Source: Pempheris klunzingeri (Eukaryota; Chordata; Actinopteri; Acropomatiformes; Pempheridae). Taken from it: a DNA stretch of 64,000 bases. Below, piece after piece: positions 22,424-51,781 of the stretch. The stretch covers positions 4,521,144 to 4,585,143 of the forward strand of contig NC_092034.1 in the NCBI RefSeq assembly GCF_042242105.1. Reading direction: 5' to 3'. Under the pieces are notes generated by a model. The model saw only the letters and a program-made list of their open reading frames with translations. It made no database searches and was not told the DNA's origin. Position 1 is the stretch's first letter; every line of letters begins with the position of its first letter. A program made the translations under genes and the position numbers.

Positions 22424-22733
22424 TACACTCAGCTGCCATTTTATAACGCACACCGAGCGGAAACTAACTACGGTTATAATGTTCAGCTTTGTTTAAACTG
22501 TTTTAGAAACGGTTAAATTCAACTTTATGATAATTTTGGAGGGGTTATACCGAGAGGTGCTTCTATTATCTGGACATGATATGAGAAACACTTTTCAGTA
22601 TGATGCAACACAACTCAACAGCACCATAAAATTACATCCTCCATTACGGCCTTCATGACAGCAGGATTTACGGCAGGGGTATTGTACTATTAATTTGAAC
22701 AAGGTGCACCCAATAAAATGGTCACTGTGTGTA
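22424..22733. mobile_element. Short non-autonomous DNA transposon with TIRs
   Basis: The left edge TACACTCAGCTGCCATTTTA and the reverse complement of the right edge (TACACACAGTGACCATTTTA) match at most positions over about 20 bp. The element is about 310 bp with no open frame. Both edges resemble the AGTGGCCACTTTATT wording of common fish MITEs. Confidence 0.55.
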
Positions 22734-34632: not shown

Positions 34633-36380
34633 CTTGGAGAGAGGCTGCTCCTTCCTCCCTCACCAAGAAGTCTGAGGAGGAGAGAGGAGGCTCTGCTGCC
34701 CCCAGCGGCCACCAGCCGCAACTGCAGCCACGGCTGCGCCCAAATTAAATAATAATACAAGAATGAATCAATTCCCAGTTAGATTTCAGAGGATATTTAT
34801 TGTAGAGAGTTTTTTCATTGTAATCCTTGGATTATTTGGCCTCGCTGTTCTGATTATCTGTGAATATCCTGATTTGCATTGTCTGTCAAAGCAGTTTGTT
34901 TTTAAAGGTGCCACTCAAATAAAGTTTTCTTTTACTGGTCTGGGTGGTCTGGGTCTGATCTGGGTACTTTTATGCCCGGAAGTCGAATATCTTACGGCTT
35001 CATGTGGTACCAAGCACATGTGTATCCACTTCCATGGGCTTCCAGGGGGTTTTCAGGACGGTCTGCTGCTGAATGGCTGGAGGAGGTCACATTATGACAT
35101 CATAAGGGGAGCCGAGTCTAAAGTCCTCACACACATTTACTGAAAATGAAAGAGGATGGTCTTTTCTTATAGTTTGACTGTGTCTAGACACTCCAGGAGA
35201 CACGTTTATGTTGAAAAGACACGAAAAAGGGACCTTTAAATAGCCGAGCTGCCCCTGAAGCATGACCTTTGACATGGTGTGGACCACGTGTTGTGTGGCC
35301 GTATGATAAAGTGATAATATTTTTTGTTGCTAACTTGCAAAGAGACCCCTTGAGCTCTCTTAAAAAGCATTTTTGCATGAGAGGTAAATCAATAAATCTT
35401 AAATTTACGAGCAGTGAAGGTGAAGTTTTTGAACGTTCATTTTTCCCAGGACCAAAATGTCTTTTAACTTTAACTTTTAACAGTTGGATAAATATGAGCC
35501 CTGACTTGTCAGTATGGTAACAATGGTGGGAATGAGATGATGAAAACACATGAACACACTTACTTCACATGGCCCATATATTCATTAATTGACATCATTA
35601 TTGAAGCCATTTGAAACAGTTTGATTAATTTAATTGATCTTAAGTTTGATAATAGAGCAAATATACCACTGATACTTTCTGAGATTACCACAAGTGTTGC
35701 TGTAACATAATCAATCAAATAAATGAGGCCATCACTACAATGATTTAACATCATTTCTGTATTGTCATATCCATCTTACCCCCCCCACCCCCACCCCACA
35801 TCAGATGGGAAAGGTTTTTAAATCCTTAATTAAATCTCATATTTTTACCTTAACTGTCACTCAGCTGCTTAGTCTTTGATGCCTCTGGGCATTACGAGGA
35901 ACCGTGTTTCTAACGGAACGGCTTCTTGTCGCTCTAAACCTCTGAACTCCTGCCAAACAAGCACAAAAGCCATCTTAGCCCCCGGCCCACGATGCTTGTT
36001 TCCTTCTTCTATCTGCATGCTTGAACTTCGCCTTTCGTGCGATTGATTTAGTCCGCAGTCCTCAATCTGTGCAAAGAACTCACGGAAATAGTTCACAATG
36101 TGCCCAAGCATGAATGTGTGTTTGCAACGAATGGACTATTAAAAACAAAGTCAAAGTCTTACCACCTCACTGTCTCACTGTGAATCAAACTTTTATTTGC
36201 ATAATTCAAGTCATACACAAAATACATTGTCAAAAAATTGCCTTATTTCATGGCTTGTCGTGTCCCTGCTAGTCAGATTGATTTAGATGAACAGGACCAG
36301 AGGCTTTCATCTCTGGTTCTCCCTTCTTTTTCTGACTCAGCGCTGTCTTTGTGACAATCAGCTCTTCTGGGCTGCATATG
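34633..36380. other. Region between vbp1 and the Tc1 element
   Basis: The first 100 bp contain the vbp1 promoter side (GC-rich, with CCCCCAGCGGCC). The open frame at 34763-35143 has no recognisable family and ends in repeat-like text (GGAGGTCACATTATGACATC) that is common in fish DNA. An 80-residue minus-strand frame (36111-35869) is intact but unrecognised. No gene is called. Confidence 0.45.
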
Positions 36381-36382
36381 TA

Positions 36383-38055
36383 CAGTGGTGTGAAAAAGTA
36401 TTTGCCCCAAGGAAATAAAATATATAAAGAATAAATTTTTTCATTGCTTTTTTCTTGGTGAGGACGTTAAAAGGCTTAATATCAGACATAGATGACCTGA
36501 GTAAACACAAAAAGCAGTTTTTAAATGATGATTTCATTTATTAAGGGAAAAAAGCTATCCAAACCAACCTGGCCCTATGTGAAAAAGTAATTGCCCCCTA
36601 AACCTAATAACTGGTTGTGCCACCCTTGGCGGCAACAACTGCAATCAAGCGTTTGCAATAACTGGCGATGAGTCTTTCACGTCGCCGTGGGGGAATTTTG
36701 GGCCACTCTTCTTTGCAGAATTGTCTTAATTCAGCCACATTGGAGGGTTTTCGAGCATGAATGGCCTGTTTAAGGTTCATGCCACAGCATCTCAATCGGA
36801 TTTAAGTCCAGACTTTGACTAGGTCACTCCAAAACCCTCATTTTGTTTTTTTTTGAGCTATTCAGAGGTGGACTTGCTGGTGTGCTTCGGATCATTGTCC
36901 TGCTGCATAACCCAAGTGCACTTGTGCTTAAGGTCACGAACTGATGGCCGGACATTCTCCTTCAGGATTTTCTGTTAGAGAGCAGAATTCATGGTTCCAT
37001 CAATTACGGCAAGTTGTCCAGGTCCTGAAGCAGCAAAGCAGCCCCACACCATCACACTACCACCACCATGTTTGACTGTCGGTATGATGTTCTTTCTCCG
37101 AAATGCTGTGTTAGTTTTACGGCAGATCTAACGGGACACACACCTTCCAAAAAGTTCCACTTTTGTTCCGTCAGTCCACAGAATATTTTCCCAAAAGTGT
37201 GGGGGATCATCAAGATGTTTTTTAGCAAGTGTGAGATGTGCCTTTGTGTTCTTTTTGGTCAGCAGTGGTTTTCACCTTGGAACTCTCCCATGGAGGCCAT
37301 TTTTGCCCAGTGTCTTTCTTATTGTTGAATCATGGACACTGACCTTAACTGAGGCAAGTGAGGCCTGCAGTGCTTTAGATGTTGTTCAGGGTTCTTTTGT
37401 GACCTCCTGCATGAGACGTTGTTGCACTCTTGGAGTCATTTTGGTAGCCGGTAGTCCTGGGAAGGTTCACCACTGTTCCATGTTTTCTCCATTTGGGGAT
37501 AATGGCTCTCACTGTTGTTCGCTGGAGTCCCAAAGCCTTAGAAATGGCTTTGTAACCCTTTCCAGACTGATAGATGTCAATGACTTTGTTTCTTGTCTGT
37601 TCTTGAATTGCTTTAGATCGGGGCATGATGTGTTGCATTTTGAGATCTTTTAGCCTACTTCATATTGTCTGTTTAAGTAATTTCTTGCTTCTACAGCTCT
37701 GGCAGTAATCAGGCCTGGGTGTGGCTAGTGAAATTGAACCCAGCTTTCAAAAATGTGGTTAATCACAGTTAAGTCATGATTTAACATGATTTATTTCAAA
37801 CGCTTGGTTGCAGTTGTTGCCGCCAAGGGCAACAAGGTTTAGGGGGTAATTACTTTTTCACATGGGGCCAGGTTGGTTTGGATAGCTTTTTTCCCTTAAT
37901 AAATGAAATCATCATTTAAAAACTGCTTTTTGTATTTACTCAGGTCATCTATGTCTGATATTAAAATTGGTTTGATGATCTGAAACATGTAAGTGTGACA
38001 ATAAAGCGCAAACAGAAGAAATCTGGAAGGGGGCAAATACTTTTTCACACCACTG
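36383..38055 (-). mobile_element. Tc1/mariner transposon, full length, defective
   Basis: The 1673-bp element begins CAGTGGTGTGAAAAAGTATT and ends in its inverted copy, with TA target duplications at 36381-36382 and 38056-38057. Each end carries a roughly 220-bp inverted repeat with a second, inner GTGAAAAAGTAATTGCCCC-like motif (about 36579-36604 and 37837-37866), the IR/DR arrangement of fish Tc1 elements. The flanking host DNA (CATATG) is intact on both sides, so the insertion is clean. The transposase on the minus strand is broken. Confidence 0.92.
36604..37638 (-). pseudogene. Tc1-like transposase, decayed
   Basis: Only separated pieces remain in different frames. The N-terminal piece (37638-37375) starts MPRSKAIQEQTRNKV after an upstream Met and contains the paired-like helix-turn-helix stretch GYKAISKALGLQRTTVR and WRKHGTVVNLPRT, the DNA-binding part. 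After this it shifts out of frame. The C-terminal piece (36795-36604) holds NVAELRQFCKEEWPKIPP and CKRLIAVVAAKGGTTSY, the usual transposase end. The catalytic DDE core between them is not readable in one frame. The element could be moved only by another copy's transposase. Confidence 0.88.
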
Positions 38056-40417
38056 TACATATGCATGTGCACATTGGAAGCATTGAAGGCTTAGAAATAC
38101 CCCAAGGCTTGAAATACCAGTTATCTTTGAGGGACTTTCTGCTCTGTAAAAGCTGCTTCACGAGAATAAATGCAAATGTGAGTTGAAATTTGATATCACT
38201 GTGAATTTTACAGGTGTGTGGGTTTCTGTTGGCAAATATAATTATTAAGCATTGGCACAGTCTGTATGTAAGTACACTTCAGCTGAGATGCATATCTGTC
38301 AAATGAAGACACGGTGAGTGATTTGCTGTCAAGGATTCAAGAATTCGTCGGTTAATTAATTCATATGTACAGATAAAAACAAGCTTCACTGCACAATGAA
38401 ATCCTTGCTCTGCCGTTTCGCCTTAAATGCTGCGTCAGGATTTAAAAAAAAAAAGATAGATAGATAAATAGAAAAAGAAAGGAGACAAATAAGTAGTTGC
38501 TATACAGTATACACACACACAATATTAGAAAATATGTTCAAGAAGTTCAAGTAGTAGTTTGATTTTAGTGCATTAACTAAAGTGCTACACTTAAGTGTAT
38601 ATTTGAGGCATGTTGTGGACGATCAGCTCGTGGTTAATATGTGGAGACACGTCGTCATATGAGTCTAGAGACTTATTCCGAACAATTTACTTACAACTTG
38701 CTTGAGTGTTTCCACTTCATGCTGCTTTCTGCAGAACGTCTGTGCCACTACTTTTCTGTGCTTTTCAGAAAGTGTGCACACGAAACATATGTCAGTTTTC
38801 AAAATGTGCTGCACTGTTGTATGTGAACCGTATTACATACCTCAGATGGGTGTTTCTGTCATTGGCTTTACCCTCATTGCACAAATGGGGTGATCAAAAT
38901 AATAGAAACAAATGTCAGTCAAATCCCGAATCACAATTTGCTGCAGGGGGCTTTGCAGTCTGTACGGCAAACTGACCCTTAGATCCTCAGATGAAGAACT
39001 ACTCCTCCAAAAAAACATTTTAACAGGGAGATAATGGTAGAAACCTCAGAGAACAGAGCAGGGATTCCTCCAGGACAGACGGACATGCAATAGATGCCAC
39101 GTGTACAGAACAGACCAACAAAAGTCACAGCATACTCAAATTACAACGACGAACAATAGAATTGAGCAGCACCACAAACTGCAGCCTCCAAAATGACCAC
39201 AAAGTCAAATCAACACCTAAAACTCAAACAGCTTCAACAAACATTTATTGCATGAATGTTGTATTTGTATTTGTTTTAGTTAAGTTTACTGAATAAACTG
39301 ACAAGTGGGTGTGATTTGCTTCATCTTTTCAATGCAAGACTTTGCAGAAGAAAGGGTTAACAAGCACAGTTGTATTTCTCGATCTGTCGCTCTCCTATAA
39401 AAGTATCTTCCAGTGGATATGTAGAGTTATGCTTTGCATTACGGGAATAAACTTTACTATTATTTTTGTGCGCTTATATATATATATTATATGTCAACAT
39501 TTCTGATTAATCTCTGGAACATAAACTGTAAGGAAGCAAAAACCCATGAAATAAAGGAGAAGAGTGATGCGTTCCATGGAAGGGAATGAGCCTTGTGCCA
39601 AGAGATGACAGCCAGATAACAGCTTTGAGCTTCTCACCAAGATGTCAGATACGTGATCGATCAGGGGGAAGAACAACACGTGTACGTCACTTTTATGCAT
39701 CTATTCTATATCAAGTAGAGCCTACATTTTAAAACTGAGAGTTATTTAGAGTTTAATCTCGTCTTCTGTCTGGATAAACAAAGAAAAAAGGAAAGGTGTC
39801 ACCAATTTATGGATGATGAAGGATTTCATACCTTCATCATGTATTTTTATTGCCTTCTGCACGATGTATGATCAAAATATCTAAATTGTAAAACTGCATT
39901 GCATTACAGTATATAAAAGATGTCACTTTTTGATGAAGAAAAAGTAGCCAGATTACATGTTTTGCATGTTTTAAAACCTCTCAGTAAGAAATCAGGTACT
40001 TGAATGACACGAGGAAGTACAATAAAGTTTTCTTTGCTGCAGTGGCATCTCAATTGTATTTGCATTACAGTATATAAAATATTTTAACCACTTTAATGCG
40101 CCTATATTCAAGAGATAAGATCAAGAAGAACCTACATTTTAAAACTGAGAATGATTTCGATTTTAATCTCAATGTCTGCCAAGAAAAAAGGGAATTAAAT
40201 TACTAATACCAACATCAAAATGCAGCTGAAACAATATTAAAGGGAATATTGTGCATTTGGAATTACTTGATGAAGGCAGCCTGATCTCTCCAGTAAACAA
40301 CAACGTCATGTCAGGAGTGAGGACAGATTTGTGTTTGATTGATTTAACAGAATGGCATTTTGCCAATACCACAGATCCTCTGTAACTGTCTAAGGGAGGC
40401 ATGTGACAACACATCCT

Positions 40418-40458
<41 letters not shown>

Positions 40459-40470
40459 ACAACTGAAGGA
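38056..40470. other. Upstream flank of C1q-like gene copy 1
   Basis: No coding exon. From 38895 onward it is the left part of the duplicated segment shared with 43875 onward. About 220 bp (39320-39540) present here are missing from the second copy. Confidence 0.6.
40419..40458. repeat. (ATC)n microsatellite 13 bp upstream of a TATA box
   Basis: About 13 ATC units here; the matching tract in copy 2 (about 45279-45297) has only about 6. Both sit just upstream of the C1q gene TATA box. Confidence 0.9.
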
Positions 40471-40477
40471 TATAAAA
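40471..40477 (+). promoter_or_regulatory. TATA box of C1q-like gene 1
   Basis: TATAAAA lies 104 nt before the start codon, predicting transcription start near 40500 and a 5' UTR of about 80 nt. The same box is at 45314-45320 in copy 2. Confidence 0.6.
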
Positions 40478-40580
40478 CAGCCAAAGCAGCCATCCTTTGA
40501 ATCACAGCTTTGGAGACAGAGCAAAGACCAGCAACAAACAGTTTGCCTGCAATATCAGCACGAGTGATCAGCCGAGAGAG

Positions 40581-42136
40581 ATGGACGCCCTGGTCGTTAG
40601 ACTGGCAGATTTGCAAATCAAGCTGAAAGCTTTGGAGGACAAAGGTAGAGTGAAACTTTCTCATTTGAGACTTTTTAAAAAAAAAATGTATTTATTGATT
40701 CATTCATTTATTAAAGAGCAACTTGTAGTTAATCATGTTGCTGCTCTTTTGTTATGAAATCCACAAGATCAATAGAAAAGAAATGCTTTGACAAAATAAC
40801 ATAACAATTTCATTTATATAGCTACAACCCAGGTGGCATTCAGTGCAGTGGCAGCCTATGGTGGGACCTACGGACCCTTCGATGTAACCATACCTCTGGT
40901 TTACAACGAAGTGATCACCAACGTTGGTAACTCCTACAACAGCAGCACAGGTAAATACATCACATGCAACCACACTGGTAATCCCCCCTGCTGATTGTTT
41001 GCTTGTTGAATATACTGTATACTTTATGTTTTTATATTTACAATAGATTAAATGACTTCATATAAGGTGAAAGGGGTCACATACTCTACACACTCTTCAG
41101 TACCCATCAGCTCTGTTTATCATCCTTTTATTAAACTCACTGCAACAGCACCAAACCGCAGACATTACAAAATCTAGCTAGAAAACAGAGCAGAGCATCC
41201 AGCATGTTGAGCAGTCGGTGGAGACGAATCCTGAGCTAAAAAGAGGGTGAATTTTGGACTCCCGTGTATGCTGGAGGTGTAAACAGTCAGTTCAGAGCCA
41301 TAATTACTTGGCAAAGGAAGATCATGGGTGTGTTTTTTCAGCTGCTTAAGCGTGAAAATGCAGATGCAGATTTAAAGAGACATAGAAAGATCAGAACATT
41401 ACACAAACAATGTGAAAAAATAACATACAGTATATATTCTGTATTCTCGACAGTATGTTTATAAAGTATTAACAGTATTTATGTCTTATTATATAATCTT
41501 CCCTTTATCTTTTTTTTTGTTTTAGAAGTTTTTAAAGATCAGGGGATCTGTCTTAATCTTCTTTTAGACTTTAGACTTAAAGTTGCCAATAATACAATTA
41601 CAAATTGTACTTTTAGGTTTTGAATGCGTTTTGATGCTACTTTCCATTTTCCATTCCAATCCATTTTGTCCATTGTTGATTACTCAACCATATTAATATA
41701 CAGTAGTGGTTTGCTTGCTATCCTTTAATGTGTCTTTCTAATTGTAATGCAGGCAGAATGTTATGTATCAATAAAAGAGCTCAGATCTTCCAGAAAGCTT
41801 TTCAGAAACCTTTAAATTTGAGGAATAACCGGATGTTTTTCCACAGGCATCTTTGCTGCACCCGTTGATGGTGTTTATTTTTTCACCTTCTTCTACCATG
41901 CCGGAGGAGAACATCCATCAAACCTGACACTGGTCCGCAACAGCGACACCATTGTCACTTCAACTGATCAGAGATCATCTGCTGATAATGCTGATAACGG
42001 AGGAAATGCAGCATACCTGCACCTGAAGAGAGGGGACCAAGTGCACGTCCGCATGGAAAAATCTACTACTATCTGGGCGCACGACAGCCACACCTCCTTC
42101 AGTGGTCACCTGATCAGTCAGACTTCAGAGGAATGA
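40581..42136 (+). CDS. C1q-domain protein, copy 1, 3 exons
   Basis: Exons 40581-40644, 40822-40950 and 41847-42136 give 160 residues. The protein is a short N-terminal helix-like segment (MDALVVRLADLQIKLKALED, residues 1-20) joined to a single C1q globular head: VAFSAVAAYGG, FDVTIPLVYNEVITNVGNSY, then FAAPVDGVYFFTFFYHAGG, the L.L.R stretch, AYLHLKRGDQVHVRM and a final TSFSGHLI. The aromatic core (GVYFF) and closing FSG are the C1q/TNF-fold hallmarks. Fish carry many such C1q-like proteins, which act as trimers in pattern recognition or cell adhesion. No signal peptide or collagen repeat is visible in this first exon, so either secretion is unconventional or an upstream exon is missed; the TATA box argues against the latter. 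ATTAAA at 42264-42269 is a likely poly(A) signal. The gene converges on the TRIM gene to its right. Confidence 0.88.
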
Positions 42137-42224
42137 AGCCATAAGCCCAACGGCAATGATGCATCTACTCTAATACTGCTGTATCACCATTGGCACCAAG
42201 TTAAATTGACATGAAAACAGATTG

Positions 42225-43101
42225 CTGTTGCTGTCATATTACTGTATTCTACCAGAATATGCCATTAAAACAGTCTCAATCCGGTCTCAGTGTTTAGTAT
42301 TTGATGTCATGACAGTGAAACAACATATTATCATTATTATTTTCATAATTATTGTTATTATCATTATTATGATCATCATCATCATTATTGTTGTTATTAT
42401 TGACAATAAGACAAATATAAGAGTGATATCAATCCTGTCATCAACAATATAAGTAACCTGCTGTTAAACAAAGTGCACCAGCAAAAAGATTTTAAAGATG
42501 CACCTCTCCTCATTTTAGTGTCTTTCAGCTCATTGTTTTACATTTTGCTTCAGTCTCACCACATTTATCAACCTGTTTCCAGCTTCAGGAAGAAGTCGAT
42601 CTCAGAGAGAAAGCTCTAAAAACACACTGTGTGCTACTTTCTCGGCATCAAATGGCAGATAAAGTTACTTACTAGCTAAATGGCTAATGGAGCTTTTTGC
42701 AGGTAATAATGCAGCACGAGACAAAAACAGAGCTAAAAGGCGAATCAGTATTTGACTTAACATCCCTTAGGTGGCTCCAAATGAGTGCGAACGTAAATTA
42801 TAAAAGTGTCCGGCCCCCAAGTGGTGAAAAAAAAATCCATCCAACAAACATGAGCTTGTCACTATGCAAATTTTCATGCCTGAACTCAGCTATACAGAAG
42901 ACTTTGCACAGTTTATTTAACCTTCGTACTAATCCTTCCTTCTATATCCTCCCAGCATGGTTTGGAAAATGGCCTCTAAGAATGCAAAGTGCATGGAAAC
43001 ACCAAAGGTCTGTTGGGACAGATGCAAAAGTTTTGCAAAACAGAAAAGGTTTCTGGTCCAAGAGTAATCCTTATTTATTTCAAAAGCAAGTCATATATAT
43101 A
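42225..43101. other. Region between C1q-like gene 1 and the TRIM 3' end
   Basis: It holds an (ATT/ATC)-rich tract (about 42335-42402), the right edge of the duplicated segment (42413) and no supported gene. The 139-residue open frame at 42697-43116 has no family signal and probably is chance. Confidence 0.5.
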
Positions 43102-43329
43102 CACTGTTGCCCATAAAGTTGGAATAATAGTTCAGTACCCCCAATTTTGTTAAAGCCTGAACACACAGTTTGCAAAGGTTAATTGTGGTTTAAGTTTCAC
43201 TGTGATATGTTTGGGAGAGTTTGATCAATAAAGTTGAGAAGATATACACTTTATTTATCAAGAATAAATCACATTGTCACAATCATTTCATGAGAAGAGG
43301 TATTTATTACAACTTTATGGGCAACAGTG
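43102..43329. mobile_element. 228-bp Tc1/mariner-type MITE with perfect 20-bp TIRs
   Basis: The ends are CACTGTTGCCCATAAAGTTG (43102-43121) and its exact reverse complement (43310-43329). TA dinucleotides flank both sides (43100-43101, 43330-43331). There is no coding capacity. It begins 95 nt past the stop codon of the TRIM gene, inside its probable 3' UTR. Confidence 0.93.
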
Positions 43330-43423
43330 TATGTACTGTTGGTGTTTTTACAGTAGAAACCCAGATACTGAGAGAACAACGCTTGTATGAAATACTGAAA
43401 CTCCCTCAGGCTCCTCCTCAAGT

Positions 43424-46400
43424 CTACGTCTCATGATTAACAGCTGTGATTACCAATGGTGCAATATTCTTCCCGTCGTCACAAACCCCTGGGCTGAAGA
43501 AGGGGAAGATCCTCTCAGAGAACAAACACCCAGTGAAGGTGTAGATGTGAGACCTGGCCTCCACGTTAAAGAAGGACACCGTCCCTTCCTCGTAATCCGT
43601 AAACACTCCGACAGTCTGTGGCTTCTCCTTGAGGGAGAGAAGGATGGAGGGGGAGTCCAAAGAGCGATATTCATCCCCGCTCCTCAGCCGCACCGTCCAA
43701 TAGCCGTTCTCCGGCTTGGAGGTGATCATCCCCTTCCTGTTGACAGACTCTTTGACCACACCCAGATCCCAGAAGGTCTTTGTCCCCACTGCAACCTGAT
43801 TGAAGATGCAGGAGAATATGTGATACTGAACATGGAAACTACATTATATAACAAGTCGATTTGAAGGTGGAGTGCAAAATAATAGAAACAAATGTCAGTC
43901 AAATCCCGAATCACAATTTGCTGCAGGGGGCTTTGCAGTCTGTACGGCAAACTGATCCTTAGATCCTCAGATGAAGAACTACTCCTCCAAAAACATTTTA
44001 ACAGGGAGATAATGGTAGAAACCTCAGAGAACAGAGCAGGGATTCCTCCAGGACAGACGGACATGCAATAGATGCCACGTGTACAGAACAGACCAACAAA
44101 AGTCACAGCATACTCAAATTACAACGACGAACAATAGAGTTGAACAGCACCACAAACTGCAGCCTCCAAAATGACCACAAAGTCAAATCAACACCTAAAA
44201 CTCAAACAGCTTCAACAAACATTTATTGCATGAATGTTGTATTTGTATTTGTTTTAGTTAAGTTTACTGAATAAACTGACAAGTGGGTGTGATTTGCAAA
44301 ACCCATGAAATAAAGGAGAAGAGTGATGCGTTCCATGGAAGGGAATGAGCCTTGTGCCAAGAGATGACAGCCAGATAACAGCTTTGAGCTTCTCACCAAG
44401 ATGTCAGATACGTGATCGATCAGGGGGAAGAACAACACGTGTATGTCACTTTTATGCATCTATTCTATATCAAGTAGAGCCTACATTTTAAAACTGAGAG
44501 TTATTTAGAGTTTAATCTCGTCTTCTGTCTGGATAAACAAAGAAAAAAGGAAAGGTGTCACCAATTTATGGATGATGAAGGATTTCATACCTTCATCATG
44601 TATTTTTATTGCCTTCTGCACGATGTATGATCAAAATATCTAAATTGTAAAACTGCATTGCATTACAGTATATAAAAGATGTCACTTTTTGATGAAGAAA
44701 AAGTAGCCAGATTACATGTTTTGCATGTTTTAAAACCTCTCAGTAAGAAATCAGGTACTTGAATGACACGAGGAAGTACAATAAAGTTTTCTTTGCTGCA
44801 GTGGCATCTCAATTGTATTTGCATTACAGTATATAAAATATTTTAACCACTTTAATGCGCCTATATTCAAGAGACATGATCAAGAAGAACCTACATTTTA
44901 AAACTGAGAATGATTTCGATTTTAATCTCAATGTCTGCCAAGAAAAAAGGGAATTAAATTACTAATACCTACATCAAAATGCAGCTGAAACAATATTAAA
45001 GGGAATATTGTGCATTTGGAATTACTTGATGAAGGCAGCCTGATCTCTCCAGTAAACAACAACACTGGTCGACGGTTTAAGTGGGTTAAAACGACAGTGA
45101 CAGATCTTACTGTAACCCGCATAAAAATGCAACTTCATCATCCAAGTGATGAATGATTTTGTGTCATGTCAGGAGTGAGGACAGATTTGTGTTTGATTGA
45201 TTTAACAGAATGGCATTTTGCCAATACCACAGATCCTCTGTAACTGTCTAAGGGAGGCATGTGACAACACATCCTAATCATCATCATCATCATCATCAAC
45301 AACAACTGAAGGATATAAAACAGCCAAAGCAGCCATCCTTTGAATCACAGCTTTGGAGACAGAGCAAAGACCAGCAACAAACAGTTTGCCTGCAATATCA
45401 GCACGAGTGATCAGCCGAGAGAGATGGACGCCCTGGTCGTTAGACTGGCAGATTTGCAAATCAAGCTGAAAGCTTTGGAGGACAAAGGTAGAGTGAAACT
45501 TTCTCATTTGAGACTTTAAAAAAAAAAAAATGTATTTATTGATTCATTCATTTATTAAAGAGCAACTTGTAGTTAATCATGTTGCTGCTCTTTTGTTATG
45601 AAATCCACAAGATCAATAGAAAAGAAATGCTTTGACAAAATAACGTAATGAGAATGTTTTCATTTATATAGCTACAACCCAGGTGGCATTCAGTGCAGTG
45701 GCAGCCTATGGTGGGACCTACGGACCCTTCGATGTAACCATACCTCTGGTTTACAACGAAGTGATCACCAACATTGGTAACTCCTACAACAGCGGCACAG
45801 GTAAATACATCACATGCAACCACACTGGTAATCCCCCCTGCTGATTGTTTGCTTGTTGAATATACTGTATACTTTATGTTTTTATATTTACAATAGATTA
45901 AATGACTTCATATAAGGTGAAAGGGGTCACATACTCTACACACTCTTCAGTACCCATCAGCTCTGTTTATCATCCTTTTATTAAACTCACTGCAATCCGC
46001 CTGCACAGCACCAAACCGCAGACATTACAAAATCTAGCTAGAAAACAGAGCAGAGCATCCAGCATGTTGAGCAGTCGGTGGAGACGAATCCTGAGCTAAA
46101 AAGAGGGTGAATTTTGGACTCCTGTGTATGCTGGAGGTGTAAACAGTCAGTTCAGAGCCATAATTACTTGGCAAAGGAAGATCATGGGTGTGTTTTTTCA
46201 GCTGCTTAAGCGTGAAAATAAGGGAACAAATGCAGATTTAAAGAGACATAGAAAGATCAGAACATTACACAAACAATGTGAAAAAATAACATACAGTATA
46301 TATTCTGTATTCTCGACAGTATGTTTATAAAGTATTAACAGTATTTATGTCTTATTATATAATATTCCCTTTATCTTTTTTTTTGTTTTAGAAGTTTTTA

Positions 46401-49400
46401 AAGATCAGGGGATCTGTCTTAATCTTCTTTTAGACTTTAAACTTAAAGTTACCAATAATACAATTACAAATTGTACTTTTAGGTTTTGAATGCGTTTTGA
46501 TGCTACTTTCCATTTTCCATTCCAATCCATTTTGTCCATTGTTGATTACTCAACCATATTAATATACAGTAGTGGTTTGCTTGCTATCCTTTAATGTGTC
46601 TTTCTAATTGTAATGCAGGCAGAATGTTATGTATCAATAAAAGAGCTCAGATCTTCCAGAAAGCTTTTCAGAAACCTTTAAATTTGAGGAATAACCTGAT
46701 GTTTTTCCACAGGCATCTTTGCTGCACCCGTTGATGGTGTTTATTTTTTCACCTTCTTCTACCATGCCGGAGGAGAACATCCATCAAACCTGACACTGGT
46801 CCGCAACAGTGACACCATTGTCACTTCAACTGATCACAGATCATGTGCTGATAATGCTGATAATGGAGGAAATGCAGCATACCTGCACCTGAAGAGAGGG
46901 GACCAAGTGCACGTCCGCATGGAAAAATCTACTACTATCTGGGCGTCCGACAGCCACACCTCCTTCAGTGGTCACCTGATCAGTCAGACTTCAGAGGAAT
47001 GAAGCCATAAGCCCAACGGCAATGATGCATCTACTCTAATACTGCTGTATCACCATTGGCACCAAGTTAAATTGACATGAAAACAGATTGCTGTTGCTGT
47101 CATATTACTGTATTCTACCAGAATATGCCATTAAAACAGTCTCAATCCAGTCTCAGTGTTTAGTATTTGATGTCATGACAGTGAAACAACATATTATCAT
47201 TATTATTATCATAATTATTGTTATTATCATTATTATGATCATCATCATCATTATTGTTGTTATTATTGACAATAAGACAGAGTGCAGGACTTTTACATAT
47301 AGAGGGGGGAGACAAAAGTTCTGCACTGCAGGCTTGAAACACTTCAAAGTAAAATCCATCATCAACCAAGACACTGACCTGGAAGTAGAACCTCCCAGAC
47401 ACGAAGCCTCTCTTTCCCACAACGCAGATGACGGGGTCGAAACGTTGGGGGTTGTCTGGCACGATGTGCAGCAGCTCGCCGCGGCCCGCCTGCTTTCCGT
47501 CAGCCGAAAGGACGATGTTGGGATGAGCAGTGTCTGGGTCTAACACCACATCAGCTAGGGGGACAAGATGGAGACAAGTTCATATAATACGAACTCTATT
47601 GTACTGTACTATCAATACAATCACAAGAGATTCATCTAGATGCTAACAAGCATCTTTACTTCCAGCTTGACTCCCTGCTACTGTCACTACTACTAGTTCT
47701 GCTACACTTCTATGAGACATAAAGCCACGTATGCCACCTTTATCCACTCTTGTAAAAGAAAATTAGTGAAGGACAGACTGCTGTGTTAAATACAGAAATG
47801 ATTGAAAATAAATAAATTAGTAAATTCAAAGCTATTATGTATACAGGGTGTTATTATAGTATAATTATTCTGGTGCAATGTTCTTATTTTGTAGAAAGTA
47901 TTAGGTAATTTGGTGAAAAATGGTGTCCAATTACTAATAATACTGTTTTTTTGGGGGTTTTTTTATTCACCCACCACCACTAAATGCACCAAACATATCA
48001 AATCCTTCCATATTACTTTAAATATATAACAATCCAACATACCAAAATGCATTTGACCTGAATATTTAAACTGGATAATTAAGAGTGCGGATTTACCTGC
48101 ATATTTGTGCATCCTCTTCATCTCTGTCGGGAAGATAGGAATCAGTTTTGGAAGCTTCAATGAGACATTTTAGTCAAAAAATGTAATTAAATTAAAATGA
48201 ATTGAAATGTGATATAAGTTGGGAGCAAGTTCCGTTTGTGATTTTTTTGTAATATTTGATTTTTCTTTCTTGCAGTACAAATTGCTTTGCAGAGCACATG
48301 TAGTTCATGCCATGCTTGGCTGAGGCAGGACCTTTCAGTTCACTTTACCTTCCTTCTTCAGACTGTCCAGTTCACTCCTCAGGGTGTCGTCCAGTTTGGA
48401 CAGCGCTCCCCTCACCGTCCCCACACAGAGTTCAGGGTGGACGCCGATCTCCATCCACTCCCTGGTGGGTGGAGGTGACGTAAGGGACGGCAACCTCTAC
48501 CAGGAGGGAAACACAGTGAAGAAATGTGAATATTACTGTATGAATAAGAGCAGTGCATTGATTTACACTGCTGCACTGCCAGTGTAAATATTCAGTGTTT
48601 AGTTTCTGTCATACATGTAATCCTCACTATGGTGAAAAAAAAGCTGAGGAATTGTTAATGTGGTGCTGAAACTGTACTGATTGTAACAAAAAGGATTTAT
48701 TTTTGACCAATGTCTTTCCTTTAACCTACTTGTGGCTCCTTAATCAACAGCTGACATGAGTTAAAACACCACAGATTAAGGTTGATTTTAACCTGTAAGA
48801 GATGCAGGTGGTCCTCGCTGTTCCTCAGCTCCTCCAGCTCAGCGTTTCTCCTCTGCAGTTCAGCGATCTCCTGCTGCAGCTCGGCGATGAGCTCCTCTGC
48901 CCTCCTCTCTGCTGCTTTCTGCTTCTCCTCGATGTCTGTGTTGACCTCAGCTTGCCTCTCCTCCACGGCGCGAAACAGAGAGTTAAAGAGACGTTCGCTC
49001 TCCTTCATCTCCTTCTCTGCACTCATCTGGTCAGGGATAAACAACAATGAATAACAGATACTGATGATGTGTTTTCCACCCAAAAAAACTAGTTCCTTTA
49101 ACCTACATTGTGTTATTCTGTACTGTAGCTGTGAAAGCACATTCTGGTCTGCTGAAGCTGCTGCTATTAGACAAACTGGTGGCCCTGCTGCTTTGACAAG
49201 TGTTTAGTATTTATGTTAATAAATATATAAGTAAAAAGTGATTAAATCTAGAAAGACACCCTTGCTCTTCGATTCTGAGGGACTAACACAAAAAATGTGA
49301 TGTTTACTGCTGCATTTATGTTTTAAAGATGCTAAGAAGTCATCTGTTATCATACTTTGTTGTAGCTAAAGTGGAGACATCTCGCCTGCATCACACGTCA

Positions 49401-50808
49401 TGTGAGTAGTTTTAAGTGACATTAACAGCAAATATAAGTAATCCTCCAAACAAACGACCCACTGTGACTCTCACAATCAATCCAAATGCTTTGTGACCGT
49501 GATTAATGTTTCCGTTAACGCCCACCTTGCTGAGTCTCAGGCAGTTTTTGATCTCCTCCACTTTCCTCAGTCGCTCCTGGATCACCTGCTGAAAGTCTTC
49601 CTCAGTCTTCTTCATTTGGACCTAAACAGGCAGAACAGACGTGGAAACCTTCAGCTGGCAGACTGCAAGTTCGTCTCAACCAGTGCCAGCAGATGAGACA
49701 ATGGACAACATTGATGACTTCATGCATTTCTCTCCACAAAAGTCTTCAGACTAAGTGCACTGATTTACAATTTACCTCAGGTGCTATTAAATACATATGC
49801 AGAATGGTGAGTCACTGTGCTTTTACACAGACCACGTTCTTTGATAAAACAACCCTAGAACTGCTGTAATAAATATCACAGCTGCAACAGAGAAGTCCAT
49901 GTAAACATGACATTTTATTTGTCATGAGTTCCTGTGTTAAGCTGTTATTTTTACACTCTGTTGCTGTTGTAGTCTTTTGAATGGCTGATCAATGTAAAAC
50001 TGGTGCCCTGTGATGGTGCAATGGTAGACCTTTAATCATTTTGTCCTGTTTAATGAAAATGTTTTGTTGTGATCTTTGGAGTGTAGCTTTGTTTAATATG
50101 TTAATTCCCATGAAAATTAGTCATGAATATGATTATCAATGCACTCGCCAATGCATTAGTGTTGATTTTTAGACTTCTGAAACCCCTTTAAAGCAGCAGA
50201 CTGTAGGTGACACTACATACCTTCCTCTCCGCACTCTCGTCCTCTATCGTAACCGCCTGGTGATCTTTGTGCTCGGTCTCGGTGCAGAACTGGCACACAC
50301 ACTTCTGTTCATCCCTGCAGAACATCTCCAGCAGCCTCTCGTGCTTCTTACACAACCTGTCCTGCAGGTTCTTCACCGGCTCGATCAGCTTGTGCAGCTT
50401 CAGGGTGGCGACTCTCTGGTGAGGCTCCAGGTGGGCTTCGCAGTACGAGGTCAGACACACCAGGCAGGACTTCAGGGCCTTCACCTGCAGGGACATCGCA
50501 GCGCAGACATCACACACCACCTCACCTGGTTTGGCTGCTGACAGCTGCGAGGCCGACGAGCACACTATTATCTTCCTGAATGTGTCTGCCAGCTCTTTGA
50601 AGGCTGTGTTGACGCTTAATTCAGGCCGGGGGCTGAATGATTTGTTACAGGTGGGGCACTGGCAGACCTCGCTGCTGCCCCACGCGCTCTGGATGCAGGC
50701 CTGGCAGAAGTTGTGCCCGCAGGGGGTCGTGACTGGGTCGGTGAACACTTCCTGACAGATGGAGCACTGGAACTGCTTTTCTGGTAGCATGTTACCTGAG
50801 GAGGCCAT
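43424..50808 (-). CDS. Bloodthirsty-type TRIM E3 ubiquitin ligase (RING-B-box-coiled coil-B30.2), 7 exons
   Basis: Exons on the minus strand: 50808-50221, 49621-49526, 49026-48793, 48496-48349, 48123-48097, 47554-47379, 43795-43424; 546 residues, all junctions GT/AG and in phase. Domain order: RING about 13-55 (CSICQEVF, TPCGHNFC, CPTC), B-box region about 95-185 (CDVC, CLVCLTSYC, CKKHERLLEMFC, CVCQFCTETEHKDH), coiled coil about 197-310 (AAERRAEELIAELQQEI), then PRY (LDPDTAHPNIVLSADGK, DNPQRF) and SPRY (FWDLGVVKESVNRKG, NGYWTV, SFFNVEARSHIYTFTG, FPFFSPG). Exon sizes 96, 234 and 27 bp are classic for TRIM genes. This matches the teleost bloodthirsty/TRIM39-like expansion, whose members are mostly tied to antiviral and inflammatory signalling. 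ATG at 50808 (ACAATGG) is preferred to an in-frame ATG nine nt upstream, because an acceptor sits there. The B30.2 is split by a 3.6-kb intron that holds C1q-like gene 2. Confidence 0.92.
43870..43876. repeat. 7-bp direct repeat, left side of inserted C1q segment
   Basis: GAGTGCA here and again at 47280-47286 flanks the second copy of the duplicated segment, like a target-site duplication. Confidence 0.75.
45314..45320 (+). promoter_or_regulatory. TATA box of C1q-like gene 2
   Basis: TATAAAA, 104 nt before the exon 1 start as in copy 1. The upstream ATC tract is shorter here. Confidence 0.6.
45424..47002 (+). CDS. C1q-domain protein, copy 2, nested in a TRIM intron, 3 exons
   Basis: Exons 45424-45487, 45672-45800 and 46713-47002; 160 residues, with all splice sites and the frame kept, so it looks functional. 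It differs from copy 1 at 8 coding bases: V to I and S to G in exon 2; Q to H, S to C and H to S (two bases) in exon 3; plus two silent changes. The S to C change (DHRSCADN) adds a cysteine that copy 1 lacks, in the loop after the first half of the C1q domain, which could add a disulphide. Like copy 1 it has a short helical N-terminus, no visible signal peptide and no collagen stretch. It is transcribed antisense to the host TRIM gene from its own TATA box. ATTAAA at 47130-47135 is a likely poly(A) signal. Confidence 0.88.
47280..47286. repeat. 7-bp direct repeat, right side of inserted C1q segment
   Basis: GAGTGCA, matching 43870-43876; lies 93 bp from TRIM exon 6. Confidence 0.75.
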
Positions 50809-51781
50809 TGTCTGCAAAACAGTTAAACATTTACAAAAGGAAGTTAGGCCATCAGTTGCTCAGGAAGATATTTTATAGAGGAAATGCATGCAAATGTTTA
50901 TATCCACACAAATGCATAGTCACATGTAGAAACACTGAACTTCCCCAATGATTGAAACATACTGTTAATCTAATTCAACCACACATATCTGCTCTCACAG
51001 ATGTTTATTTATTACCTAATGCAAATATGTGGAGCTGTTCATGTCTTGCAATTCGGGACTCTTAGTCTTAGTCATTGTTGTCTCAGCTAAATACACACAC
51101 CAGTCACACCCACACATCCACATAATTACACCAGCACTCCAACACCTTATTACCAATGGAAAAAAAACACTCAGACCTGGTATTTAGTGGTAATTATTCT
51201 ATACAGACACCATTAATTAATCTAGTCTTGCTTTATTAGAATAATATTTAGTTATATCCTGACCATTATGTTATTTTCCTGGCATATTATTTCATATCTT
51301 CCAAGTTTACATGATTAAAAACCATTTTGTGTGTCCGATCAGGTATTTCTACCACATTTCAGCTTCATCTGTCACTGTTACTGGGCGTAAGCATTTAGTA
51401 ACAAGTAATCTCTTTAGATCTAAACACTAACTAGCTTGTGTACTTGAAAACATAAGTAGATGAACTGCATTTAAATCTAGCGAAACAGCAAGCTCAGCCA
51501 CCAGGAAACATGGGTTTTACAGTCATATAAATGTAATGCAATTAACAAGGCAGCTTCTCCAGCGCAAAGTCTAAGCTGGCTATGAAAAGATAGAAGGATT
51601 TTAAAATGCTTTAGACCAGATTGAATGTTAAGTAACATTTTAAAAAACAGCAAACATTATAACCAGTTCCCATCAGCCATTGAGAACATACATTTACAGC
51701 GCAGATAGTCAGATATCTTACGTGCTATTTAAACACAACAAAACACATTTTTAGCTCTTACTGCATGTTGCTCGTACTTAC

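What the first reader, a model, noticed from the sequence alone, without database searches (positions are those of the whole stretch)
43870..47286. C1q gene copied as a 3.4-kb unit into a TRIM intron with a 7-bp target-site-like duplication
Seen: 43877-47279 is nearly identical to 38897-42413, keeps all introns, and is bounded by GAGTGCA on both sides; the same repeat is not at the edges of copy 1. Without the insert the TRIM intron would be about 170 bp. A gene with introns cannot have moved by mRNA retroposition, so a DNA-level insertion with staggered cuts is implied. Known 7-8 bp duplications come from some cut-and-paste transposon families or end-joining repair. The result is an antisense nested immune gene inside another immune gene.
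Basis: partly seen in the sequence, partly recalled or inferred. Interest (0 to 1): 0.8.

Follow-up and report, generated by a model that had tools for sequence, protein, structure and literature searches.

The report
Fish C1q gene copied into TRIM intron
In what looks like a fish chromosome, a 3.4-kb piece of DNA holding a small immune-type gene was copied from next door into an intron of a neighbouring gene, most likely by error-prone repair of broken DNA rather than by a jumping gene; the kind of event is known, but this copy is long and carries a whole gene.

Summary
Window 43877-47279 is a direct copy of 38897-42413 (30 substitutions, several indels), sits in the PRY-SPRY intron of an antisense TRIM gene, and is flanked by GAGTGCA (43870-43876, 47280-47286). 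Without insert and one GAGTGCA the intron would be 173 bp. One correction: the CA of the left GAGTGCA is also present beside the donor (2-bp microhomology). The 7-bp repeat has a chance of about 1-4 in 10,000. Direction is supported too: an old dispersed repeat runs through copy 1's left edge and is cut there in copy 2, so copy 1 is the donor. That argues against a transposon: the left end lies inside an old repeat, the ends show no inverted repeats or poly(A), and no other full unit was among the 40 genome-wide candidates scored. Best fit: repair-mediated (template-switch or strand-annealing) duplication of nearby DNA at a staggered break, as Pace et al. 2009 describe for vertebrates. It differs in length: 3.4 kb with a three-exon gene, against at most 619 bp in their nearby-donor set. 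Both C1q frames are open; expression and function are untested. The empty site in a sister species, the right-end search and long reads were not available.

The parts
38895..42413 (+). Copy 1 (donor) unit
   Evidence: BLAST and alignment to copy 2; old repeat runs through its left edge
43877..47279 (+). Copy 2 (inserted copy) inside the TRIM intron
43870..43876 (+). Left GAGTGCA; its last two bases CA also precede the donor segment
47280..47286 (+). Right GAGTGCA
38842..38923 (+). Old dispersed repeat running across copy 1's left breakpoint
   Evidence: nhmmer profile of 17 genomic sites, 47.3 bits, E 6.8e-14; copy 2 gives 27.2 bits, mainly from the shared part
40581..42136 (+). C1q-domain gene, copy 1: coding exons 40581-40644, 40822-40950, 41847-42136; 160 aa
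   Evidence: Pfam C1q E 1.2e-22
45424..47002 (+). C1q-domain gene, copy 2: coding exons 45424-45487, 45672-45800, 46713-47002; 160 aa
   Evidence: Pfam C1q E 9e-22
39320..39538 (+). 219-bp segment absent from copy 2, read as a deletion in copy 2
   Evidence: parts of it match five other places at 66-86% identity
45064..45162 (+). 99-bp segment absent from copy 1, read as a deletion in copy 1
   Evidence: only its own place was found in the genome
43796..47378 (-). TRIM intron between the PRY and SPRY exons, 3583 bp with the insert
43424..43795 (-). TRIM SPRY exon (coding part)
   Evidence: Pfam SPRY
47379..47554 (-). TRIM PRY exon
   Evidence: Pfam PRY on PRY+SPRY joined in frame; frame
48721..50817 (-). 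TRIM RING/B-box (50188-50817) and coiled-coil (48721-49140) open frames

Best explanation
A break with staggered ends, or a stalled fork, arose in the short PRY-SPRY intron of the TRIM gene. The repair polymerase copied about 3.5 kb of the neighbouring C1q locus, which ends 1.46 kb away in direct orientation, entering or leaving the template at a 2-bp CA microhomology. It then rejoined the intron so that GAGTGCA was made twice, by filling in the stagger or by re-entering 7 bp back. Later the two copies each lost segments (219 bp from copy 2, 99 bp from copy 1). Shown: the duplication, its edges, the 7-bp repeat and the microhomology. Supported: copy 1 as the older unit. Inferred: the break, the losses and the repair pathway (strand annealing, microhomology-mediated replication and end joining cannot be told apart here).
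For: Exact edges and 7-bp repeat. CA shared at the left junction. 1,463 bp between donor end and insert start. Old repeat spans copy 1's left edge: profile of 17 sites scores 47.3 bits over 38842-38923; left flank alone: copy 1 summed score 208.5 against 1000 single-base shuffles with mean 125 and maximum 156.5, copy 2 131.5 with 227 of 1000 shuffles as high. No inverted repeat between the 100-bp ends above shuffles; no other full unit among 40 of 464 candidates scored. Pace et al. 2009 (passages and sections 7 and 12): nearby-donor duplications with microhomology 2-9 nt and target duplication 4-21 nt; 3 of 39 have both, 2 more have both with filler; 80 events in zebrafish. Tan et al. 2021 (section 8): 160 of 281 animal Pack-TIRs lie under 15 kb from the parent, microhomology at one or both breakpoints in 190, median 2 bp.
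Against: The length (3.4 kb) is well above the 619-bp maximum of the nearby-donor set in Pace et al., though their search depended on interrupted repeats. A target duplication is in the minority of their nearby cases: 6 of 39 (3 MH+TSD, 2 MH+TSD+filler, 1 filler+deletion+TSD). A 2-bp microhomology has a 1 in 16 chance by itself. The polarity evidence has weak sides: a profile of the left flanks alone gives copy 1 only 8.9 bits, E 0.12, though it is the best hit in the window, and an ungapped comparison to the consensus barely separates the copies (10 against 8 of 16 bases). No sister-species empty site was seen.
Confidence: 0.77

Rival explanations
1. A DNA transposase moved or copied the unit as if it were an element, leaving a 7-bp target-site duplication.
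For: 7-bp duplication with clean edges; inverted-repeat elements lie nearby at 36373-38065 and 43096-43335. The right end was not searched genome-wide with an answer.
Against: Ends: best inverted local score 10, reached by 66 of 200 shuffles. The left end cuts through an old dispersed repeat. No second full unit among 40 of 464 candidates scored. Copy 1 has no repeat abutting both edges.
Confidence: 0.05
2. A cut-and-paste transposon once sat in the TRIM intron with GAGTGCA on both sides; after it left, the gap was filled with neighbouring C1q DNA, so the 7-bp repeat is the footprint of a vanished element.
For: Gap filling with nearby DNA in and around animal transposons is described, although that paper found breaks inside elements a better fit than excision.
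Against: Every base at both junctions belongs to the donor or the intron, with no leftover of an element; one more step than the simple model. Transposon families with 7-8-bp duplications are recalled, not tested.
Confidence: 0.08
3. Ordinary tandem segmental duplication followed by loss of part of one copy; GAGTGCA is a coincidence.
For: Tandem duplication of immune genes is common (recalled); the copies lie 1.46 kb apart in direct orientation.
Against: The 1.46-kb spacer with the TRIM SPRY exon is not duplicated in the window, so a deletion ending exactly at a 7-mer match (about 1e-4) would be needed.
Confidence: 0.05
4. Reverse transcription of an unspliced transcript by a LINE-type enzyme.
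For: Retrotransposed segments with poly(A) also show target duplications (12 of 17 in Pace et al.).
Against: No poly(A) or poly(T) tract at either end; the unit starts about 1.7 kb before the coding start and ends about 280 bp past the stop codon.
Confidence: 0.02
5. Assembly artefact: two alleles or a misjoin shown as two loci.
For: No reads were available.
Against: Each copy has its own flanks, 30 substitutions and large private indels. The TRIM DNA right of the insert (47270-48500) matched only itself and five short motif hits in the genome, and the 7-bp footprint is what a real insertion leaves.
Confidence: 0.03

Closest known systems
Repair-mediated duplications by capture of proximal DNA (Pace, Sen, Batzer, Feschotte 2009, PMC2671141; abstract, passages, sections 7 and 12 read)
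   Same: Donor within 5 kb on the same chromosome, microhomology at a junction, short target duplication, no poly(A); also found in zebrafish.
   Different: 3.4 kb here against a maximum of 619 bp (mean 162 bp) in their nearby-donor set; carries a whole three-exon gene; the acceptor is a short gene intron, not an interrupted repeat.
Single-copy Pack-TIRs made by gap filling (Tan et al. 2021, PMC8277862; abstract and section 8 read)
   Same: Capture biased to nearby DNA, microhomology of median 2 bp, transposition not needed.
   Different: Those lie inside a terminal-inverted-repeat element; none was seen framing this insert.
Breakage-replication/fusion (Zhang et al. 2026, PMC12807874; abstract and outline only)
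   Same: Duplicated segments arise from replication and joining of broken ends.
   Different: Its hallmark, adjacent parallel breakpoints, was not tested here.

Membership tests
Repair-mediated duplication (nearby donor) | Donor on the same chromosome within 5 kb | tested here: met
   Donor ends at 42413, insert starts at 43877
Repair-mediated duplication (nearby donor) | Junction marks: microhomology, filler, deletion or target duplication | tested here: met
   2-bp CA at left, 0 at right, 7-bp GAGTGCA
Repair-mediated duplication (nearby donor) | No poly(A)/poly(T) tail | tested here: met
   Junction sequences
Repair-mediated duplication (nearby donor) | Pre-insertion empty site in a relative | not testable with these tools
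   No relatives of G000 are held; only the joined flanks were shown
Repair-mediated duplication (nearby donor) | Size in the published nearby-donor range (up to 619 bp; a range, not a definition) | tested here: not met
   3403 bp
Cut-and-paste DNA transposon | Terminal inverted repeats at the unit's ends | tested here: not met
   100-bp ends
Cut-and-paste DNA transposon | Other copies sharing both ends | tested here: inconclusive
   No other full unit among 40 of 464 candidates scored; the left-end 20-mer recurs, but as the inside of an old repeat; the right-end pattern search did not complete
LINE-mediated retroposition | Introns removed and poly(A) tail | tested here: not met
   Both introns kept, no tail
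Tandem segmental duplication | Intervening DNA duplicated with the unit | tested here: not met
   Spacer 42414-43869 is single in the window
C1q-domain protein | Pfam C1q domain | tested here: met
   PF00386, 80.9 and 78.1 bits, cut-off 23.7

The most novel reading that the evidence does not exclude
Break repair copied a whole immune gene with its upstream region in one step into the intron of another immune gene. The nested antisense copy is expressed, is diverging in its C1q head (of the 8 coding differences between the copies 6 fall in exon 3 and 6 change an amino acid; 5 of the 7 polarised ones are derived in copy 2), and its transcription interferes with the TRIM gene. This would be a route by which nested gene pairs and C1q diversity arise without transposons or retroposition.
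Probability: 0.12. Interest if true: 0.55.

Novelty: new member of a known kind. Interest (0 to 1): 0.36.

Why it matters
It is a young, well-preserved example in which donor, acceptor, target duplication and the likely direction of copying can be read from one genome. It suggests that repair-mediated local duplication in vertebrates can carry a complete gene with its introns and upstream region, not only the short pieces in the survey read here, and that it can create antisense nested gene pairs.

Tried and rejected
Rejected: transposition of the unit (no inverted repeats at the ends; left edge inside an old repeat; no other unit among 40 of 464 candidates scored). Rejected: copy 2 as the source (repeat cut in copy 2). 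Rejected as less likely: the 219-bp segment as a young insertion in copy 1; parts of it match five other places at only 66-86% identity. Rejected: the 99-bp segment as a dispersed repeat inserted into copy 2; the search found only its own place.

Led little: a third C1q gene on the same chromosome (L062, about 312 kb away, 54 of 98 residues identical in exon 3) polarised 7 of 8 coding differences, 5 as derived in copy 2 and 2 as derived in copy 1, 1 uninformative; too few to decide anything. Coding against non-coding divergence: 8 of 483 against 22 of about 2798, p 0.07; exon 3 alone 6 of 290, p 0.04 without correction for choosing it. Paralogous TRIM DNA for an empty-site comparison: only itself and five short hits (33-43 bp of the query). 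Rfam: nothing at gathering scores. Right breakpoint of copy 1: other genomic matches begin about 98 bp beyond it and do not span it, so it gives no polarity. Literature: terms C1q, TRIM, nested, antisense, fish and intron together gave 8 papers, 7 listed, none on this by title; templated sequence insertion with target site duplication gave 2, neither on this by title.
Full report
Setting. The window lies at C23:4521144-4585143 of an assembly of 645.9 Mb in 439 contigs; C23 is 18.65 Mb.

The duplication. Self-comparison finds one long direct pair: 38895-42413 and 43875-47279, in three blocks of 98.8, 99.5 and 97.1% identity. Base by base there are 30 substitutions, a 219-bp segment only in copy 1, a 99-bp segment only in copy 2, a 15-bp microsatellite difference and indels of 1-10 bp. 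Non-coding divergence is 22 of about 2798 sites, 0.8%, so the event looks young. With teleost mutation rates of a few per billion sites per generation (recalled), it would be of the order of a million generations.

The junctions. Copy 2 starts after GAGTGCA at 43870-43876 and ends before GAGTGCA at 47280-47286. On the + strand no other GAGTGCA lies in 36-51 kb; its reverse complement lies there three times. A chance 7-mer match is about 1.3e-4 to 2.2e-4, or 4.4e-4 in a simulation of blunt local insertions. The last two bases of the left GAGTGCA, CA, also precede the donor segment, so the left junction has a 2-bp microhomology; the right junction has none. Joining the flanks gives a site with one GAGTGCA, and the TRIM intron becomes 173 bp instead of 3583 bp. 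Copy 1 has no repeat abutting both edges; 5- and 6-base words are shared between its flanks, GTGAT (touching the left edge, about 10 bp past the right edge) and ACAAAT (near the left edge, across the right edge).

Which copy is the source. The 20 bases at the unit's left end recur in the genome: 49 matches at up to 2 mismatches, two of them the window's own, against 19 for the reversed control. I fetched 17 of the 47 sites outside the window, namely all 12 of the commonest two-mismatch form and all 5 one-mismatch sites. Many of them share an old repeat that continues to the left of the unit's edge. Copy 1 carries that left part; copy 2 does not. A profile of the 17 sites hits copy 1 over 38842-38923 with 47.3 bits (E 6.8e-14) and copy 2 over 43864-43903 with 27.2 bits, mainly the shared part. 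With the 58 bases left of the edge alone, copy 1 sums to 208.5 over the 17 sites (1000 single-base shuffles: mean 125, maximum 156.5), while copy 2 sums to 131.5, which 227 of 1000 shuffles reach. Weaker results: an ungapped comparison to the consensus of the 12 main sites barely separates the copies (10 against 8 of 16 bases), in part because copy 1 needs a one-base gap there; a profile of the left flanks alone puts copy 1 first in the window but only at 8.9 bits, E 0.12. Together these say that the breakpoint cuts an old repeat, that copy 1 is the donor, and that the left end of the unit is not a transposon end.

What the large indels mean. The 99-bp segment of copy 2 was found nowhere else in the genome, so it was probably lost from copy 1. 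Parts of the 219-bp segment of copy 1 match five other places at 66-86% identity, which suggests an old repeat that was there before a 0.8% duplication, so it was probably lost from copy 2. A third C1q gene about 312 kb away served as outgroup for coding differences: copy 1 agrees at 5, copy 2 at 2, neither at 1 of 8.

The genes. Both C1q copies splice to open frames of 160 aa with a Pfam C1q domain. Eight coding differences: two silent, six amino-acid-changing, altering five residues; dN 0.0165, dS 0.0179. In-frame stops lie upstream of the ATG in both copies; no signal-peptide predictor was run. The TRIM gene on the other strand has RING, B-box, coiled-coil, PRY and SPRY parts in open frames, and the PRY and SPRY exons join in frame; the whole TRIM transcript was not assembled. 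Nothing here shows expression of either gene.

Mechanism. A unit with a defined pair of ends moved by a transposase is disfavoured: no inverted repeats between the ends, left end inside an old repeat, no second unit among 40 of 464 candidates scored; the right-end pattern search did not complete. Retroposition is disfavoured: introns kept and no tail. Tandem duplication with loss does not explain the unduplicated spacer and the 7-bp repeat. The pattern matches repair-mediated duplications by capture of nearby DNA in Pace et al. 2009: same chromosome, donor within 5 kb, microhomology 2-9 nt, target duplication 4-21 nt, no poly(A) in any of 39 nearby cases. Of those 39, 3 show microhomology plus target duplication, 2 more with filler, and 1 filler, deletion and duplication; the other 33 show no target duplication. 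Gap filling from nearby DNA, with microhomology of median 2 bp where present, is also reported for single-copy Pack-TIRs in animals (Tan et al. 2021). The pathway here is inferred.

What is unusual. The nearby duplications of Pace et al. reach at most 619 bp; this one is 3.4 kb and carries a whole gene with upstream sequence. Their method depended on interrupted repeats, so its size range may understate what occurs. I rate it a new member of a known kind, of moderate interest.

Noticed in passing
47307-47332: A 26-bp motif in the TRIM intron, about 20 bp right of the insertion site, occurs 24 times in the genome at up to 2 mismatches (4 exact, window included) against 0 for the reversed control; the flanks of the five other copies aligned are not clearly alike. 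Possibly the conserved core of an old repeat or a bound site.
   Followed up: partly
40801-40808, 41140-41145, 41350-41365 and their partners in copy 2: Three clustered differences between the copies look like small complex indels, as if repaired by templated end joining (sequences). Not polarised.
   Followed up: no
43901-44131 (also in copy 1): An old dispersed repeat of about 235 bp may have inserted within the old repeat of the left edge, whose further part seems to resume at 44131 (weak profile hit, 8.8 bits, E 0.048).
   Followed up: partly
22552-22651: Another, gapped match to the left-edge repeat profile in the window (24.2 bits).
   Followed up: no
36373-38065: Inverted-repeat arms, the longest 130 nt and 98% complementary, about 800 bp left of copy 1; looks like an inverted-repeat element.
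   Followed up: no
43096-43335: Small element with 32-nt inverted ends (94% complementary) between copy 1 and the TRIM SPRY exon.
   Followed up: no
L062:2685-4456: A third C1q gene of similar exon layout on the same chromosome, about 312 kb away; its first exon seems to extend further upstream in frame than in the two window copies.
   Followed up: partly
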